Shown here: one piece after another, positions 485-11,688 of the stretch | How the letters are laid out: each line of letters starts with the position of its first letter | Numbering within the stretch: position 1 is the stretch's first letter | Assembly: GCF_008327825.1 (NCBI RefSeq) | Contig: NZ_AP019827.1 | Coordinates: 1,302,001 to 1,366,000, forward strand | DNA: 64,000 bases | Source of the DNA: Leptotrichia shahii | GTDB taxonomy: Bacteria; Fusobacteriota; Fusobacteriia; Fusobacteriales; Leptotrichiaceae | Direction: 5' to 3' | Notes under the pieces: model-generated | What the model saw: the letters and a program-made list of their open reading frames with translations, nothing else | The model's database searches: none | Told to the model about the DNA's origin: nothing | Made by a program: the position numbers and the translations under genes

Positions 485-2185
485 TTATTTATCTTTTCTC
501 TTTTTTATCAATGTAGCAATCACGATAATCACAATTAAAATTAATTGACTAATAAATACTTCCATATTTGCATAAATTCCCAAAATTTCCATTGTAGGTA
601 TAAAATGAACTACGTGTAACGGTAAAATCCCTACAACTTGCAACATGTGAATACTTGTTCCAAGCATTTTAAATGCAAGGAAATAAATTGTCCATGTAAG
701 TACAAAAAACACTTGATGTATTTTTATTTTTGAAGAAGCATATATTAAAACAAGTGCAATTACAATTAGTATCAATATCGCACTTACAATACCGATAATC
801 AAATTCTGCAATGAAATTAATGGTAAAATTCCTACATAAAACAATATTGTTTCTGCCCCTTCTCTAAATACCGCAAGAAAACTAAGTACAAACATTGACA
901 CAAAACTTCCTGTACTTAATACAATATCCATTTTTCTGTCAATATAATCTTGCCAAGATTTCAAGGATGATTTACTATGCAGCCAGAATCCAATCCCAAT
1001 CATCATTATAACTGCAAAAATTCCTACAAATCCTTCCAGAATTTCACGATTTGTTCCTGAAGATACCGCAGGAAATAACGCCTGAAGAGCAAATGCTATT
1101 ACCACACTTGCCAAAATTCCAGCAGCAGCTCCTGCATACACCCAACGTAATCCTTTTTTCTGATTTGCAGCTTTCAAGCTGCTTACCAATGCCAGAACTA
1201 TTAGAAGCGCCTCCACACCTTCACGAAGAAGTATAAACATTGCATCAATAAACGTATATTGTGCTTTTGTATCAATTTGTGATAATTCTGTAATTAATCC
1301 TTGTAATTGTTCCTGATACTCTTTTTCGCTACCTTTTACCATGATTATTGGAGTCTGTGTTTCCACTTTTGTATATAAAGCTGAATTTCTCGTACTTACA
1401 TCGCCTTCAACCGTAGGCCATACCTGAATAAACTCTTTCACTTTTGACTGACCTTTAGATTTATTTCCATTTTTAAAGGCTTCCAACGCATCTTTCAACA
1501 TATCTACAGCTTCTTTTAGTGTAATTGTGCTTGAAATATTATTTTCTATCTTCTTGCCATCTAAATAGTCTTGTATTGTTGATTTCAAGTCATTAAAAGA
1601 ATTGATTGTGCTGTCATAATCAAATGGCTCCACTTCCATAGAACTTCTCAAAAATGACATCGCAGTTTCTACTTTCCCATAGTAAGGAATACTTCTGCTT
1701 CTTATAAAACTTTCATTTCTTGTCCAGACACCATTAAATTTCAGATATTCTTTTTTCATAAGTTCCACATCTTTAGATTGAATTGCTTTTTCCAGCATAT
1801 CTAAAGCAGGATTCATTCTTGACTGGAACTTTTTCTTTTCTGCATTATCGTCAACAGGATTCTGCTCTTTTTCAAAAGCTAGTAATGCTGTTGTAACTTC
1901 TCTCAGGTCATCTTCTGACAATACAGCTTTTTCTTTATTTAAAAGTTCCTGTACCTTTTTCCCTTTCGTAGAATCAGCATTTTTAACCTTTTTAAATTCA
2001 TCTCTTACTTCGGAAAAAAGTTTTTTTGCTTCATTTTGGTTATTATTTTTTATTGCCGTTGTTGTGTCTGTAATTTTTATGTAAAGTCCACTATAACTTT
2101 CTTCTGCAATAATATTCACGAAGAATAGCATAAAGCACAAAAATAGCATTGTACTTATTTTTTTATTCAAATAATTTCTGCCCAA
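485..2185 (-). CDS. efeU: FTR1-family iron permease with large extracytoplasmic N-terminal domain (EfeU-like)
   Basis: Predicted inner-membrane permease for iron. A signal-like hydrophobic stretch (residues 11-27) is followed by about 290 hydrophilic, helix-rich residues and then a seven-helix-type membrane domain. The two iron-binding REGxE motifs are visible: REGVE at 321-325 and REGAE at 441-445. The periplasmic part contains an internal duplication: a W-x(4)-E...Y-x-KVET pattern appears around 153-173 and again around 256-275, as in long bacterial FTR1 proteins that carry EfeO-like helical domains. The ORF overlaps the end of efeB by 23 bp, so translation is probably coupled. At 566 residues it is about twice E. 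coli EfeU. Substrate (ferrous versus ferric) is inferred from family. Confidence 0.92.
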   Translation of the reverse strand: MGRNYLNKKISTMLFLCFMLFFVNIIAEESYSGLYIKITDTTTAIKNNNQNEAKKLFSEVRDEFKKVKNADSTKGKKVQELLNKEKAVLSEDDLREVTTALLAFEKEQNPVDDNAEKKKFQSRMNPALDMLEKAIQSKDVELMKKEYLKFNGVWTRNESFIRSRSIPYYGKVETAMSFLRSSMEVEPFDYDSTINSFNDLKSTIQDYLDGKKIENNISSTITLKEAVDMLKDALEAFKNGNKSKGQSKVKEFIQVWPTVEGDVSTRNSALYTKVETQTPIIMVKGSEKEYQEQLQGLITELSQIDTKAQYTFIDAMFILLREGVEALLIVLALVSSLKAANQKKGLRWVYAGAAAGILASVVIAFALQALFPAVSSGTNREILEGFVGIFAVIMMIGIGFWLHSKSSLKSWQDYIDRKMDIVLSTGSFVSMFVLSFLAVFREGAETILFYVGILPLISLQNLIIGIVSAILILIVIALVLIYASSKIKIHQVFFVLTWTIYFLAFKMLGTSIHMLQVVGILPLHVVHFIPTMEILGIYANMEVFISQLILIVIIVIATLIKKRKDK

Positions 2186-3401
2186 TGTACTCTCCCTTCT
2201 TTATCCCTCCAAAACACGCAAAAATTCCTGTTCCGACATGAGTAATGTATTCATTCAACTTGTCATCGTTTCCTAGGCTGTTCTGAATCTTTATAAATTG
2301 ATCAGGATGTTTTTGAAAACATATAAATAGCAGTCCCGCATCAAACTGTCCGCTCACTTCATCTATTCCATTAGAATAAGAAAAGGCACGGCGTGCTATT
2401 TTAACGTCAGCTTTTTTGGCAAGATAAACGTGTGAATCAATTGGTAGAACTGGTTTTCCGTCTGGTCCTTTTTTATTTATGTCAATTGTTGCAAATTCAT
2501 CTGTTTCTCCGAATGGAGCCCCGCTTTCCTTATACCTTCCAAACGTATTTTCCTGCTCCTGCAAATTAGTTCTATCCCATGTTTCAAGATGCATTTGAAT
2601 ACGCCTTACAATAAGAAAAGTCCCATTTTTCAGCCAATTATTCTTATCATACCAGACAACATTTTTAAAATCATTATTATTTTTTGGATTTTCCGTTCCA
2701 TCTTTAAATCCAAAAAGATTTCTTGGAGTTTCTTTTCCATTTCCAATAGGCAAAAAGCCAGCTTGAGTCCATTTTAAAGTAATTAAGGCACGTCCTTTAC
2801 GAACAAGATTTCTCACAGCATGAAATGCTACCTGTGCATCATCCGCACAAGCCTGAATACAAATATCACCGCCTTTATACTTGTCCTTTATCTGATCTCT
2901 CGGAAAATGTGGCAAATCCTTAAATTCTTCCATTTTCTTATTATCCAGCTTCAATTTATCCAGAAAAGACGGACTTATTCCAAAAGTTATTGTCAGACGG
3001 TACGGATTTAATCCCACTGTTTCTCCTGTATCTAGTGGAGGAACTAGATGATTTGCAAGTTCTGGTGCTACAAGTTCACCCTTCATAAGTTTTTCAGAAT
3101 AATCTGTCCAGTCCTTGAACATCTGTTTTATTTCTTCCTTGTCTGTAGAATGTAAATCTAATACCGCAAAATAAACATTTTTCTGAACAGGAGTAGCAAT
3201 TCCTGACTGATGTTCTCCATAAAATGAAATTTCTTCATTTCCAACAACTTGATTTGCCTTGCCGCTAAACATATTTGCAAAAATTGCACCCGCTCCGCTC
3301 GCTCCAATTGCAGCACCTGCTCCAACCATTCCTGCTTTTTTCAAAAAATCACGACGTGATATTTTTTTATCAAACCATTTTTTATCATTTTCATCACTCA
3401 T
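2163..3401 (-). CDS. efeB: Tat-exported Dyp-type heme peroxidase (EfeB)
   Basis: Periplasmic heme-dependent peroxidase of the EfeUOB iron system. Residues 14-20 are a twin-arginine motif (SRRDFLK), followed by a Gly/Ala-rich hydrophobic segment (24-45), so export as a folded, heme-loaded protein is expected. The Dyp signature GFKDG is at 231-235 (GxxDG family motif), and the 412-residue length fits EfeB. The gene lies between efeO and efeU on the same strand and overlaps efeU. EfeB has been linked to extracting iron from heme and to ferrous oxidation before transport; which applies here cannot be told from sequence. The gap upstream (3402-3608) holds a hairpin repeat rather than an obvious promoter. 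Confidence 0.93.
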   Translation of the reverse strand: MSDENDKKWFDKKISRRDFLKKAGMVGAGAAIGASGAGAIFANMFSGKANQVVGNEEISFYGEHQSGIATPVQKNVYFAVLDLHSTDKEEIKQMFKDWTDYSEKLMKGELVAPELANHLVPPLDTGETVGLNPYRLTITFGISPSFLDKLKLDNKKMEEFKDLPHFPRDQIKDKYKGGDICIQACADDAQVAFHAVRNLVRKGRALITLKWTQAGFLPIGNGKETPRNLFGFKDGTENPKNNNDFKNVVWYDKNNWLKNGTFLIVRRIQMHLETWDRTNLQEQENTFGRYKESGAPFGETDEFATIDINKKGPDGKPVLPIDSHVYLAKKADVKIARRAFSYSNGIDEVSGQFDAGLLFICFQKHPDQFIKIQNSLGNDDKLNEYITHVGTGIFACFGGIKKGEYIGQKLFE

Positions 3402-3429
3402 TATTTTACCTCTTTTTATACTGTAAGTT

Positions 3430-3600
3430 TTATTTAGATGTGTTCAATAATCTAAATGTTAATTTTAACAAAGGGAATTAATTCCCTATTTAATAATAGT
3501 TAAACATATTAGATATGTTTGATAACCTAAGTTTTTTTATCTATACAAGGGGTCAAGACCCCTTGCTTCAAGATATTTATTTTATTAAATTTTTATCGAA
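3430..3600. repeat. Intergenic hairpin repeat between efeO and efeB
   Basis: The gap contains a perfect 9-bp stem, CAAGGGGTC / GACCCCTTG (3546-3554 and 3557-3565, loop AA). The surrounding about 80 bp (3508-3595) match 32540-32630 closely, including the flanking 'gataac.taa' and 'atttattttatta' blocks. A second short palindrome (gggaattaattccc, 3473-3486) lies beside it. It is one copy of a degenerate repeat group described in the findings, and could also act as a transcript stabiliser or partial terminator between efeO and efeB. Confidence 0.65.
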
Positions 3601-3608
3601 TAAGTGTA

Positions 3609-4490
3609 TTATTTCTTAGGAGTTGCGTCTATTACGATTCCCATTTGCGATAAAGGTTCTCCAAGTTTAGTAACTGCTTCAGCTAGAGCTTTTGTATCTT
3701 CTGGCTTCAACTCTGTGTACAATTTATAATTTTTATCATCTGTCATATATTTGTCAAGAAGTGCATTTACAGCTTTAAATTCAGTATCTAAAGTTGTTAC
3801 GAGCTTAGCATCTTTTTGTTCTAATTTAGGTCTGAACAGTTCAAAAATTTTCTGAGCCCCTTCGATATTCGCTCTAAAGTCGTATAAATCAGTATGCGAG
3901 AACACTTCTTCTTCTCCAGTAATTTTTTGAGTCGAAACTTCATTTAACAAATCAATCGCTCCTGTAACCATTAAATCAGGTGTTACTTCAATTGTGGCAA
4001 TTTTTGCCTTTAGTTCCTTAATGTCGTTTACAAGATCTTCTGCATATTTTTCAGTTCCTTTTGTAGTGTTTTGTTCCCACAATATTTTTTCAATTCTATG
4101 AAAACCTTTCCATCCTTCTTCATTTTTAAATTCTTCCTTGAAGTCTACAAGACGGTAATCTATCTTAATATCCGATTCTCCAAAACTTTCAGCGATAGGC
4201 TCAGATCTTTCATAAGCCATACGGATTAAGGGATAAACTTTTTTAGCTTCGTCTAATTTCCCAGTCTTTAATAATTGTGCAAAATTTTCTGTATCCTTTA
4301 AAAGCATATCAATCTGACCTTCAACATACTTTTTATATTCAGAAGTTTCCTTGCTTAAATCAGTTTTCCCTTGTTCAGCTGTCTTTCCAGCTGTTGTACC
4401 AGCCTTTCCACCTTCCTTTGCTCCAGTATCTTTGCCACAGCTTATCGCCATTAATGCTCCAATAAGCAATAAAATTCCCATTTTTTTCAT
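3609..4490 (-). CDS. efeO: Imelysin-family iron-binding lipoprotein (EfeO/EfeM-like)
   Basis: Extracytoplasmic iron-binding component that would hand iron to EfeU. The N-terminus is a lipoprotein signal with lipobox AISC (Cys18) and a low-complexity Gly/Thr/Lys linker to about residue 45. The remainder is the helical imelysin (peptidase M75-like) domain, and its metal-binding HxxE motif is visible as GFHRIE at about residues 129-134. There is no cupredoxin domain, so it resembles the short EfeM form, anchored by lipid. It is the first gene of the operon, with a good promoter at 4521-4549 (TTTACA-17-TATAAT). An AT-rich direct repeat overlapping the -10 could be a Fur-type site, but I would not call it an operator. 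Confidence 0.9.
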   Translation of the reverse strand: MKKMGILLLIGALMAISCGKDTGAKEGGKAGTTAGKTAEQGKTDLSKETSEYKKYVEGQIDMLLKDTENFAQLLKTGKLDEAKKVYPLIRMAYERSEPIAESFGESDIKIDYRLVDFKEEFKNEEGWKGFHRIEKILWEQNTTKGTEKYAEDLVNDIKELKAKIATIEVTPDLMVTGAIDLLNEVSTQKITGEEEVFSHTDLYDFRANIEGAQKIFELFRPKLEQKDAKLVTTLDTEFKAVNALLDKYMTDDKNYKLYTELKPEDTKALAEAVTKLGEPLSQMGIVIDATPKK

Positions 4491-5735: not shown

Positions 5736-6290
5736 TTATTCAAAAACTGATGGTTCCGCTATTCCCACATACTCAAGGTTTCTATAATTTTCATTAAAAT
5801 CAAGCCCATATCCTACAACAAATTCATTTGGAATTTCAAATCCAACATATTGCACATTAACTTCAACTTCTCTTCTTTCAGGCTTATCTAAAAGTGTGCA
5901 AAGCGATATTTTCTTAGGATTTCTGCTTCCCAAAATTTGCAATACTTTTTTTAACGTAAATCCTGAATCAATAATATCTTCAACTACCAAAACATTTTTC
6001 CCGTTAATTGTACTTCTCAGATCCTTCAAAATTTTAACTTCCCTAGAACTCTGAGTTCCTTCTCCATAACTAGAAGCCTCTATAAAATCAATCTCAAGCG
6101 GCAATTTTATTTCCCTAATCAAATCAGCCATAAACACAATAGATCCCTTCAAAAGCCCTACTATTATTAGCGGCTCATTCTCATTTTTAAAATCTTCAGT
6201 AATTTTTTCTCCCAACTCCTTCACTTTTTTATGAAGCTCTTCCTTTGTAATTAGCTGTTTTTTTATTCCAAATTCAAAATCTTTGTTCAT
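5736..6290 (-). CDS. hpt: Hypoxanthine phosphoribosyltransferase
   Basis: Purine salvage enzyme that joins hypoxanthine (or guanine) with PRPP to give IMP (or GMP). The PRPP-binding loop VVEDIIDSG lies at residues 102-110, and the family's conserved 'SSYG' flexible-loop segment is at 73-76. Its 184 residues match the Hpt/HprT family, and the usual C-terminal 'VGYGLDFNE' block is present. The ATG start is preceded by an AAGGAG-type site. It stands alone, with family A repeats on both sides. Confidence 0.95.
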   Translation of the reverse strand: MNKDFEFGIKKQLITKEELHKKVKELGEKITEDFKNENEPLIIVGLLKGSIVFMADLIREIKLPLEIDFIEASSYGEGTQSSREVKILKDLRSTINGKNVLVVEDIIDSGFTLKKVLQILGSRNPKKISLCTLLDKPERREVEVNVQYVGFEIPNEFVVGYGLDFNENYRNLEYVGIAEPSVFE

Positions 6291-6501: not shown

Positions 6502-6529
6502 TTGACTTTTTTAATTTTTGTGTTATAAT
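6502..6529 (+). promoter_or_regulatory. Strong promoter with no protein gene downstream
   Basis: TTGACT (6502-6507), 16-bp spacer, TATAAT (6524-6529). It points into about 220 bp of non-coding sequence that ends in a terminator, and opposes the rplT operon. Confidence 0.75.
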
Positions 6530-6535
6530 ATTAAT

Positions 6536-6755
6536 GTTGAGGAAATGTTAAGCGATGTTTAACAATCTCTCGGCTGTATAGGGAAATTGTTTTTTTGAAT
6601 AAAAGACCATTTTATGAGATAGCCCAAAAAAACATTATTTATTTAATTTCCCTATATAAAAAGGGCTATCTCATAACCTAAAGTTAATCTATTTTGTAAG
6701 ATTTACAAGTATAGTCCTTTTGATTAAATCTAATTCATTTAGATTTTTTTTATTT
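6536..6755 (+). ncRNA. Candidate structured small RNA of about 215 nt
   Basis: A consensus promoter (6502-6529) and an intrinsic terminator (stem AAATCTAA / TTAGATTT at 6726-6733 and 6739-6746, then a T-run) enclose a stretch without a meaningful ORF. Inside are a short hairpin (TGTTAA / TTAACA, about 6546-6563) and two long inverted repeats that interleave: TATAGGGAAATT (6577-6588) pairs with 6645-6656, and TTATGAGATAGCCC (6612-6625) pairs with 6663-6676. They form an H-type pseudoknot pattern or two exclusive folds. The length would suit 6S RNA, but I see no diagnostic 6S sequence and do not claim it. Confidence 0.6.
6726..6755 (+). terminator. Intrinsic terminator of the candidate small RNA
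   Basis: Stem of 8 bp with a 5-nt loop (TTCAT), followed by T(4)ATTTT. Nothing is encoded upstream on this strand other than the candidate RNA. Confidence 0.65.
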
Positions 6756-6849: not shown

Positions 6850-6905
6850 AAAAAAAGTAATACTCAAACAGTTGCTTTTAATTTAAAAATCACCATTTGA
6901 GTATT
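6850..6905 (-). terminator. Terminator of the infC-rpmI-rplT operon
   Basis: Inverted repeat AATACTCAAA / TTTGAGTATT (6859-6868 and 6896-6905). On the minus strand it is followed by a run of seven T, 22 bp after the rplT stop codon. Confidence 0.8.
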
Positions 6906-6926
6906 GATTTATTTATATTTGAATCA

Positions 6927-7271
6927 CTATTTAACTTTTTCTACTAATTTTGCAAATTCAGCAGGATTGTTTAATGCTAAGTCTGCTAAAACTTTTCTAT
7001 CAAGTTCAATTCCAGCTTTTTTAAGTCCATTCATTAATCTTGAGTAAGAAATTCCGTTTAATCTTGCAGCAGCGTTAATTCTGATAATCCATAATTCACG
7101 CATTTTTCTTTTTTTCAATTTTCTATGTTCAGTTGCGTAAGCCATAGCTTTTTTAACTGCTTCATTAGCTTTTTTATAATTTGTTTTTATGGCTCCTCTA
7201 TAACCTTTTGCTTCTTTTAAAACTTTTTTATGTCTTTTTCTTCTAACTATTCCTGTTTTTACTCTTGGCAT
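6927..7271 (-). CDS. rplT: 50S ribosomal protein L20
   Basis: L20 binds 23S rRNA early in large-subunit assembly and in many bacteria represses its own operon. The N-terminus MPRVKTG and the block [17 protein letters not shown] are hallmark L20; 114 residues is the standard length. A strong AAGGAGG site precedes the ATG. The gene is last in infC-rpmI-rplT but also has its own promoter in the 200-bp gap before it (7312-7339). Confidence 0.98.
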
Positions 7272-9348: not shown

Positions 9349-11688
9349 TTAAATTGTTCTAACTATACGAAAACCACAAGAAATTTGTACAGTTTTAAAA
9401 TAATTTGAAAGTAAAGTCACACTCGTTATAGTACTATTAGCACTATTGCTATATCTCTTAGATATACTTATATTATCTTTATAATCATCAATATCCCAAC
9501 AACCTCCTCTTAATCTTCTGTCATTTTCAGTTTCATCATATATATATGGTATTTTTTCTGATATATATCCTGAATTAGTAGTGTCATAACACCATTCACA
9601 TATATTTCCACTACAATCATAAAGTCCTAATTGATTTGGTTTTTTTATTCCTACATCGTGAGTTTGGTCTCCTGAATTTCCTTTGTGCCAAGCAACTTCA
9701 TCTATATTATTACTGCCTGAATATTTATAATCAAATGTTCCATCTTGCATTGCAATTTCGCCACCTCTTGCAAACCATTCCCATTCTACTTCTGTTGGCA
9801 ATCTAAATCCTTCAGTTTTTCTAAAATCTGCTACATTTGGGTATTCTGTCTTACCATTTAATTGATGTATTCTTAATATTCCTTCTTCTTTTCGACTTAA
9901 ATCATATACTGGTTTTAATCCATACTTTTCACTTAATTTATTACAAAACTCCAAAGAATCCCACCAAGACACTTTTTCAACTGGACGTCTTCCACCTTTA
10001 AATTCTGATGGATTATTCCCCATTACTTCCATCCACATATCTTGTGTTGTCTGATATTTACAAACTTCTAAATTGCAAACTTCTCTTTCTTCATTAAAGA
10101 ATGATGGTGTGTATTTTCCTCCATTTACTATAACCATATCTTTGAATGTCGGTCTTCCAGCTATTCTTTTACCATTTTTTATTTTTTGAGAAGCTGATTT
10201 TATTTTGAATTTTTTATAACTCTTTTTCAAAACATCTATTTTATCAGATAAAATATTCGATAAAGAATCTATACTTTTAGTTGCTTCTAATAAATTATTT
10301 GTTGTAATTTTCTTTTCTTCTTCATTTTCAGTTTCTAATATAAATTTATTTTCAACTGCGTTTTTGACGATTTCTTCTATATCAGCACCGCAGTAGCCTT
10401 CCGTTTCTTCTGCCAGTTCTTTCAAGTTTATGTCGTCTGACATTTTTCTTCTTTTTTCAAGGTGAATTTCAAATATTCTTTCTCTTTCTTCCTCATTTGG
10501 GAAGTCTATGAAAAATACTTCATCAAATCGCCCTTTTCTTAGAAATTCTGGCGGGAAGGCTGTTATATCGTTGGCTGTTGCTACTACGAATACTGTGTTT
10601 TCTTTTTCCTGTAACCAAGTCAAAAATTGTCCAAATAGACGTTTTGTTATGTCGCTTGCTCCACCGTTTTGATCTATTCCTGCAAAGGCTTTTTCTATTT
10701 CATCTATCCATAAAATGCACGGACTTATTGATTCGGCTGTTTTTAGTGCGACTCTCATATTATGCTCCGATTCACCAACGTATTTTCCCAAAAGTCTTCC
10801 TATATCCAGCCTTAATAATGGAACATTAAACAATCTTGCACTTGCTTTTGCTGCCAAACTTTTACCACAGCCTGGCATTCCCACAAGCAGTACTCCTTTT
10901 GGTGTATCCACTCCAAATTTCTTAGCTTCATCCAGTCTTCTAAATACTTGTGCTTTAGAACTTAACCATTCTTTCAGCCCTTCAAGCCCACCAATTTCTT
11001 CTATTTTTTCCTTAAAGTCAATAATTTCCAAAATTGAAGATTTTTTAATTATTTGCCCTTTTTCACGAATGATTATTTGATTAGCACCTTTTGAAATAGC
11101 TCCATAATTTTCTTCTAATATCATATTTAAAATATGATCCAAATCTAACTTGGTTAAACCTTTTAAAGAAATTGACAAATCTCCCAAATCATCCCAATAA
11201 ATTCGAGCATTATTTTTTTGAGCAAAATCTTGAATATATTGATTAATTGTTGTTTCATCCATAGTTTCAATATCAATTATACTTGTAAATTTTTCTAATC
11301 CTTTTGGTACATTTACATCTTCATCAACAATTATTATATTAAAATTATAATTTATATCATTATACATTTTTTCAGCTATTTTTTTAATAAAAGCAATATT
11401 TCGTGCCTCTTTCATTTCTTCTTCCGTATTTTTTATCAATAAAAATACATTTGTTTTAAAACCAACCGAAAAAAGAATATTTAAAAAGCTATACAAATCT
11501 GCAACTTCATCACTTTTAACCTTGGTTTCAAAATTTACAGCTCCAAAGGCCCTATATTCAAAAATCGCCTTATTTTTATATTCTTTAGTCGCTTCTGTTA
11601 CAATTGTGTCAACTTCCTTGTAATCTCCACTGTGTACCCAAATTATAGGTCTTCTTGCCCTTAAATACTTTGATAAATTTGTTTCCAT
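9349..11688 (-). CDS. Ycf46-like AAA+ ATPase fused to a formylglycine-generating-enzyme-like domain
   Basis: 779 residues in three parts. Residues 1-225 resemble the N-terminal region of Ycf46-type AAA+ proteins ('RRPIIWVHSGDYKEV'). Residues 226-480 are a full AAA+ module: Walker A GMPGCGKS (270-277), Walker B CILWIDE (324-330), arginine-finger region RKGRFDE (384-390). Residues about 516-779 are an FGE-sulfatase/C-type-lectin-like domain, with 'GFRLPTEVEWEWFARGG', 'GLYDCSGNICEWC' and a closing 'CGFRIVR'. The paired cysteines that catalyse formylglycine formation in true FGEs are not evident, so a binding role is more likely. The gene starts after AGGAGG, 147 bp behind the glycine-rich protein gene. 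The fusion suggests a sensor or remodelling ATPase; function unknown. Confidence 0.85.
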   Translation of the reverse strand: METNLSKYLRARRPIIWVHSGDYKEVDTIVTEATKEYKNKAIFEYRAFGAVNFETKVKSDEVADLYSFLNILFSVGFKTNVFLLIKNTEEEMKEARNIAFIKKIAEKMYNDINYNFNIIIVDEDVNVPKGLEKFTSIIDIETMDETTINQYIQDFAQKNNARIYWDDLGDLSISLKGLTKLDLDHILNMILEENYGAISKGANQIIIREKGQIIKKSSILEIIDFKEKIEEIGGLEGLKEWLSSKAQVFRRLDEAKKFGVDTPKGVLLVGMPGCGKSLAAKASARLFNVPLLRLDIGRLLGKYVGESEHNMRVALKTAESISPCILWIDEIEKAFAGIDQNGGASDITKRLFGQFLTWLQEKENTVFVVATANDITAFPPEFLRKGRFDEVFFIDFPNEEERERIFEIHLEKRRKMSDDINLKELAEETEGYCGADIEEIVKNAVENKFILETENEEEKKITTNNLLEATKSIDSLSNILSDKIDVLKKSYKKFKIKSASQKIKNGKRIAGRPTFKDMVIVNGGKYTPSFFNEEREVCNLEVCKYQTTQDMWMEVMGNNPSEFKGGRRPVEKVSWWDSLEFCNKLSEKYGLKPVYDLSRKEEGILRIHQLNGKTEYPNVADFRKTEGFRLPTEVEWEWFARGGEIAMQDGTFDYKYSGSNNIDEVAWHKGNSGDQTHDVGIKKPNQLGLYDCSGNICEWCYDTTNSGYISEKIPYIYDETENDRRLRGGCWDIDDYKDNISISKRYSNSANSTITSVTLLSNYFKTVQISCGFRIVRTI

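What the first reader, a model, noticed from the sequence alone, without database searches (positions are those of the whole stretch)
6502..6755. Small-RNA gene with two interleaved long inverted repeats
A good promoter and terminator define an about 215-nt transcript opposite the rplT operon. Its 12-bp and 14-bp inverted repeats alternate (A-B-A'-B'), which allows either a large pseudoknot or two exclusive folds. This is a regulatory design rarely seen outside riboswitches and structured ncRNAs, yet no gene lies downstream.
Basis: partly seen in the sequence, partly recalled or inferred. Interest (0 to 1): 0.6.

Follow-up and report, generated by a model that had tools for sequence, protein, structure and literature searches.

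The report
Conserved Leptotrichia small noncoding RNA gene
A stretch between two ordinary genes of an oral bacterium (Leptotrichia) carries what looks like a real gene for a ~215-nucleotide noncoding RNA of unknown function, whose middle part is almost unchanged across ten species although the DNA around it has drifted to near-random, so it probably does something important that nobody has yet studied.

Summary
Promoter (6502-6529), perfect 12-bp repeat A (6577-6588/6645-6656) and 14-bp repeat B (6612-6625/6663-6676) lie where stated, interleaved A-B-A'-B'; 0 of 500 shuffles reproduce this. Comparison supports a real gene: 10 of 13 genus genomes carry it, in the rplT-hpt gap where read. In six genomes compared, the core is 97.5% identical (6S RNA 92%, rplT 97%) while sequence on either side falls to 40-51%. 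The three genomes lacking it form one clade; nothing was found in 83 other genomes of the order. No Rfam family matches; 6S RNA and tmRNA lie elsewhere.

A:A' and B:B' could coexist as a pseudoknot; the truly exclusive pair is B:B' versus a third stem, P3 (B' with 6700-6719). Thermodynamics predict A:A' first, B:B' when B' emerges (10/10), then A:A'+P3 in 8/10. Covariation supports the 5' hairpin P1 and weakly P3; A:A' shows only one-sided wobble changes and B:B' never varies, so neither is proven by covariation. Best reading: stand-alone, genus-specific structured regulatory RNA; target and partner unknown; transcription not shown.

The parts
6502..6529 (+). promoter: TTGACT - 16 nt - TATAAT with extended -10 (TG)
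   Evidence: 11/12 to consensus; 23 of 28 positions invariant in 10 genomes against 9 of 65 just upstream; only such match in the 64-kb window, 0 expected
6536..6750 (+). predicted noncoding RNA, about 215 nt (start inferred from the -10 box, end from the T run)
   Evidence: orthologues in 10 of 13 genomes of the genus, same place and orientation where read; transcription itself not shown
6536..6574 (+). P1, 5' hairpin
   Evidence: 15 pairs, 6 with changes on both sides, 96.7% of cells paired
6577..6588 (+). arm A of P2 (pairs with 6645-6656); P2 as a whole starts at 6575
   Evidence: perfect 12-bp inverted repeat; 14 consensus pairs, 11 invariant, 3 with one-sided A-U/G-U changes, 100% of cells paired
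6588..6597 (+). U7 strand of the upper part of P2 (pairs with 6625-6634)
   Evidence: inverted repeat I15; 95.9% of cells paired
6605..6676 (+). near-invariant core block (B, A', B' and the loops between them)
   Evidence: 69 of 74 alignment columns invariant in 10 genomes
6612..6625 (+). arm B (pairs with 6663-6676)
   Evidence: perfect 14-bp repeat, identical in 10 of 10 genomes
6645..6656 (+). arm A'
6663..6676 (+). arm B'; shared between B:B' and P3
6661..6719 (+). P3: 6661-6679 with 6700-6719, competitor of B:B'
   Evidence: 16 pairs, 95% of cells paired, 5 vary on one side, 1 on both; weak in L009 and L010
6726..6751 (+). terminator: A+T-rich hairpin followed by T8
   Evidence: sequence; kept in most orthologues, replaced in L009, not evident in L005 and L007
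6927..7271 (-). rplT (ribosomal protein L20), convergent neighbour, not part of the RNA
   Evidence: ORF translation; neighbour in orthologous loci read
5736..6290 (-). hpt (hypoxanthine phosphoribosyltransferase-like), neighbour on the other strand, not part of the RNA
   Evidence: ORF translation; neighbour in orthologous loci read; family named from the sequence, not tested with a profile

Best explanation
The region is a stand-alone gene for a trans-acting, structured noncoding RNA of about 215 nt, restricted to one branch of the genus Leptotrichia. SHOWN by comparison: a conserved promoter, a conserved ~100-nt core in a drifting gap, fixed location, a covarying 5' hairpin. INFERRED: (1) it is transcribed from about 6536 to about 6750; (2) as it is made, hairpin P2 (A:A') forms first, then B' emerges and pairs with B in the P2 loop, giving a pseudoknot or a B:B' hairpin; then the 3' strand of P3 emerges and competes for B', so the RNA has two nearly equal conformations; (3) the near-invariant loops are the working surface, binding target mRNAs through a short seed or a protein, and the choice between B:B' and P3 exposes or hides the B segment. 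Step 2 is a thermodynamic prediction, step 3 is a hypothesis.
For: Ten of 13 genomes of the genus carry it, between rplT and hpt where read. In six genomes with both RNAs sampled: core 97.5% mean identity and 93% invariant columns, against 6S RNA 92.1%, rplT 97.3%, hpt 87.9% and the 200 bp on either side 40.1% and 50.6%. Promoter invariance far above the flank. P1 covaries; the whole three-hairpin fold exceeds all 500 shuffles in cells paired and covariation score, and every slid control. G-U versus A-C cells are 35 to 10 on the + strand, as expected if the + strand RNA folds, though the fold was chosen on that strand. Folding: B:B' is the predicted structure when B' has just been made in 10/10; the P2+P3 fold wins in the full RNA by 2.3 to 7.7 kcal/mol in 8/10, B:B' in L009 and L010. 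No conserved ORF seen. Extended-complementarity target searches did not exceed their controls, consistent with a short seed or a protein partner.
Against: No transcript has been shown. B:B' never varies and A:A' varies only by one-sided changes, so no covariation supports either. The pseudoknot could not be scored with the software available. The covariation of P1 rests on few independent events among ten related genomes. No target or partner was found. The terminator is A+T-rich and not kept as a hairpin in three genomes.
Confidence: 0.55

Rival explanations
1. Same RNA gene, but B:B' versus P3 is a true attenuator: P3 (AAAAAGGGCTATCTC...TATAGCCTTTTCT) is an intrinsic terminator and B is its built-in antiterminator, so that conformer choice sets where the RNA ends (about 6722 or about 6750) or whether it reads on into antisense of rplT.
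For: P3 has an upstream A-tract and downstream U-tract, and resembles terminator-like hairpins elsewhere in the genus (L055, L039: GGCTGTCTCATAAAG...GAAACAGYC..TTTTT). B is exactly complementary to its 5' strand in 10/10. Fold order fits.
Against: A second terminator follows within about 30 nt and no + strand gene lies downstream. The P3 U-tract is short and broken (TTTTCTAAT or TTTTGATT). P3 is weak in L009 and L010. Few other occurrences of the motif in held loci are terminators.
Confidence: 0.15
2. A scaffold or sponge RNA that binds a protein (as 6S RNA binds RNA polymerase), with the invariant core as the binding site; no base-pairing targets.
For: Core conservation includes predicted loops and exceeds that of 6S RNA in the same genomes. 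No conserved long complementarity elsewhere.
Against: No positive evidence for any protein; short-seed base pairing fits as well.
Confidence: 0.2
3. Cis-antisense control of the neighbours: the RNA pairs with read-through transcripts of rplT or the hpt leader made from the other strand.
For: Opposite strand, fixed position between rplT and hpt in the loci read.
Against: Conservation lies in the self-complementary core, which cis-antisense pairing does not need. It overlaps neither CDS. An inverted repeat followed by a T run just after rplT (6857-6907 region, - strand) could already end that transcript. The clade without the RNA keeps the rplT-hpt arrangement.
Confidence: 0.06
4. A DNA-level or mobile-element remnant: the B arms are ends of an insertion element or miniature transposon.
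For: GGGCTRTCTCATAA recurs in the genus above its reversed control and is the terminal repeat of a ~190-bp MITE-like element in L040 and L059.
Against: One copy per genome at one fixed site; arms face the wrong way for an element end; promoter and P1 are conserved too; whole core unlike the MITE.
Confidence: 0.04

Closest known systems
6S RNA (Rfam RF00013)
   Same: Stand-alone, about 200 nt, single copy, strongly conserved in the genus
   Different: The 6S RNA of all 13 genomes is a separate gene; this RNA gives no 6S match even at E = 10 and is predicted as three hairpins, not one long hairpin with a central bubble
Fusobacterial trans-acting sRNAs such as FoxI and FoxJ (PMC11005410)
   Same: Stand-alone small RNAs of the same phylum
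   Different: Described in Fusobacterium nucleatum; the paper does not mention Leptotrichia. The R1 model finds nothing in 83 other genomes of the order. Sequences were not compared directly here
Orphan structured ncRNA motifs from intergenic-region surveys, e.g. the high-ranking candidates of Narunsky et al. 2024 (PMC11109978)
   Same: Narrowly distributed structured RNA with no gene association; that survey included Leptotrichia buccalis
   Different: Not among the motifs found in the main-text passages read; its supplement, which might list this region, could not be read here
Transcription attenuators and riboswitch expression platforms
   Same: Mutually exclusive stems (B:B' versus P3), one of them terminator-like
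   Different: No gene downstream; two terminator-like elements in a row; no ligand or leader peptide
rhtB sRNA (Rfam RF01814)
   Same: Weak resemblance of the B:B' hairpin read on the - strand (24.8 bits, E 0.067)
   Different: Far below the gathering score of 55, wrong strand relative to the promoter, and only 18.3 bits in L010

Membership tests
6S RNA | match to the RF00013 covariance model | tested here: not met
   no match at gathering nor at E <= 10; true 6S elsewhere in 13 of 13 genomes
6S RNA | one long hairpin with a large central bubble | tested here: not met
   consensus fold is three separate hairpins
tmRNA | match to RF00023 | tested here: not met
   tmRNA lies at G000:C1:2060492-2060830; no match in the window
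any described Rfam family | score at or above the gathering threshold | tested here: not met
   0 matches in the whole window; best sub-threshold matches are unrelated
bacterial stand-alone small RNA (general kind) | own promoter in an intergenic region | tested here: met
   by consensus and conservation only:
bacterial stand-alone small RNA (general kind) | own terminator | tested here: inconclusive
   hairpin with T8 in most orthologues, replaced in one, not evident in two
bacterial stand-alone small RNA (general kind) | conserved as RNA with compensatory pairing | tested here: met
   P1 has six pairs with both-sided changes, fold above shuffled and slid controls; A:A' and B:B' not informative
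bacterial stand-alone small RNA (general kind) | expression as a discrete RNA | not testable with these tools
   no RNA data available
riboswitch or attenuator | regulated gene directly downstream on the same strand | tested here: not met
   rplT is convergent on the other strand
riboswitch or attenuator | mutually exclusive stems, one terminator-like | tested here: inconclusive
   B:B' versus P3; P3 termination not shown
mobile or repeat element | multiple copies at varied sites | tested here: not met
   one full copy per genome at a fixed site

The most novel reading that the evidence does not exclude
A new class of noncoding RNA with a bistable, co-transcriptionally rearranging pseudoknot core in which nearly every base of about 70 nt is fixed, more conserved than 6S RNA in the same genomes, carrying out a core function specific to one Leptotrichia lineage (for example a protein-binding RNA switch that is not cis-regulatory).
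Probability: 0.25. Interest if true: 0.65.

Novelty: new member of a known kind. Interest (0 to 1): 0.42.

Why it matters
Regulatory RNAs of Fusobacteriota are little studied, and Leptotrichia is a common member of the human oral flora. A single-copy RNA gene more conserved than 6S RNA in the same genomes, yet with no Rfam family and confined to one branch of one genus, is a clear and cheap target for experiment. If the bistable core is real, it would be a natural switch that is not attached to a gene.

Tried and rejected
6S RNA, tmRNA and every Rfam family. Remote homologues: model R1 over 96 genomes of the order finds only the ten; a laxer run on 13 genomes gave only hits with E >= 0.4, which look like coding sequence, ordinary terminators or other chance matches. 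DNA pattern A'-gap-B' in the 84,980-species contigs: two Leptotrichia records (L. hongkongensis, oral taxon 879) and three apparently chance matches, not followed up; none in viral contigs; blastn found nothing in plasmids. Long-complementarity targets of the invariant loop: counts at the level of the reversed control; the B-side search found a few extra weak matches that were not followed up. Small ORFs: none conserved by eye (the ATG near the 5' end is absent in several orthologues; ATGAGATAG is two codons). Mobile element: single copy, rejected. My first alignment mixed strands and was discarded; the L001 and L010 rows carried extra upstream sequence and were replaced. One search was a wasteful alignment with no use.

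Full report
WHERE IT IS. The feature lies in the gap between hpt (5736-6290, -) and rplT (6927-7271, -), on the + strand, convergent with rplT.

OBSERVATION. All elements described are present. Interleaved perfect repeats of this length did not occur in 500 shuffles, and the RNA folds 3.6 standard deviations better than shuffles. The terminator is a weak, A+T-rich hairpin with eight T.

IT IS A CONSERVED GENE. A nucleotide search of 13 genus genomes gave near full-length orthologues in nine others besides the window's own copy, at 79-93% identity. The correctly oriented alignment shows an invariant -35, an extended -10, a drifting 5' part, an almost unchanged core and a drifting 3' part. Invariant columns: 14% just upstream, 82% in the promoter, 45% in 6530-6576, 93% in 6605-6676, 31% in 6677-6710, 9% downstream. 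In six genomes for which 6S RNA was also in hand, mean identity is 97.5% for the core, 92.1% for 6S RNA, 97.3% for rplT, 87.9% for hpt and 40-51% for the flanks. The three genomes without it (G006, G007, G009) have a short rplT-hpt gap without the element (150-170 bp stretch read), group together with full support on a long branch of an hpt+rplT tree, and show no copy elsewhere. The tree is unrooted, so one gain or one loss are both possible. No copy was found in 83 other genomes of the order.

STRUCTURE. The consensus fold has three hairpins: P1 (6536-6574), P2 (A:A' extended by a U7:A7 stem) and P3 (6661-6679 with 6700-6719). P1 has six pairs with changes on both sides; P3 has one; P2 has only one-sided, pair-keeping changes in its lower part. 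B:B' never varies. The fold beats every shuffle for paired cells and covariation score and every slid control, but with ten related genomes these controls are only indicative. B:B' competes with P3 for B', and not necessarily with A:A'.

FOLDING PATH. Minimum-energy structures of growing transcripts give P2 until about 6670, B:B' at 6676, and P2+P3 from 6724. At the end of B', B:B' is preferred in all ten sequences. In the full RNA the P2+P3 fold is better by 2.3-7.7 kcal/mol in eight, and B:B' in L009 and L010. These are nested-structure energies; a pseudoknot A:A'+B:B' would add stability to the B:B' state that I could not compute. The two states are therefore close, in several genomes within model error of each other.

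WHAT IT IS NOT. Not 6S RNA, not tmRNA, not any Rfam family. Not a riboswitch or leader of a gene, since none follows. Not a mobile repeat, although B resembles the end of a MITE-like element and the 5' strand of some terminators in the genus.

LITERATURE. The survey of Narunsky et al. 2024 (PMC11109978) analysed intergenic regions of L. buccalis; the passages found name two Leptotrichia motifs, both gene-associated (manA-II, fhsA), and not this RNA. Its supplement could not be read, so an unnamed listing there is possible. The FoxJ paper on F. nucleatum (PMC11005410) does not mention Leptotrichia.

VERDICT. A new, lineage-specific structured noncoding RNA candidate of a known general kind, well supported as a gene by comparison, with an attractive but unproven bistable core, unknown target and no expression data.

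Noticed in passing
L059 and L040, about 190 bp around position 1501: A MITE-like element of about 190 bp with terminal repeats GGGGCTRTCTCATAA...TTATGAGACACCCTC, in at least two Leptotrichia genomes; its ends resemble arm B.
   Followed up: partly
L055, L039, L035 and L051 near 1501: Intrinsic-terminator-like hairpins whose 5' strand is GGGCTRTCTYATAA recur in the genus; the GGGCTATCTCATAA motif is commoner than its reversed control.
   Followed up: partly
6857-6907: Inverted repeat ACTCAAA...TTTGAGT followed on the - strand by a T run, probably the terminator of the rplT operon.
   Followed up: no
9349-11688 (-): Large ORF that by eye joins an AAA+ ATPase-like domain to a C-terminal part resembling formylglycine-generating-enzyme/sulfatase-modifying domains; not tested with profiles.
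   Followed up: no
485-4490 (-): Three consecutive genes that by eye look like an EfeUOB-type iron uptake operon (permease, Tat-exported Dyp-type peroxidase, lipoprotein); not tested with profiles.
   Followed up: no
L009 orthologue, downstream of the RNA: The conserved terminator is replaced by a different hairpin plus T run (AATCCATAGGGATTTTTATTT), suggesting the need for termination is kept while the sequence is exchanged.
   Followed up: no
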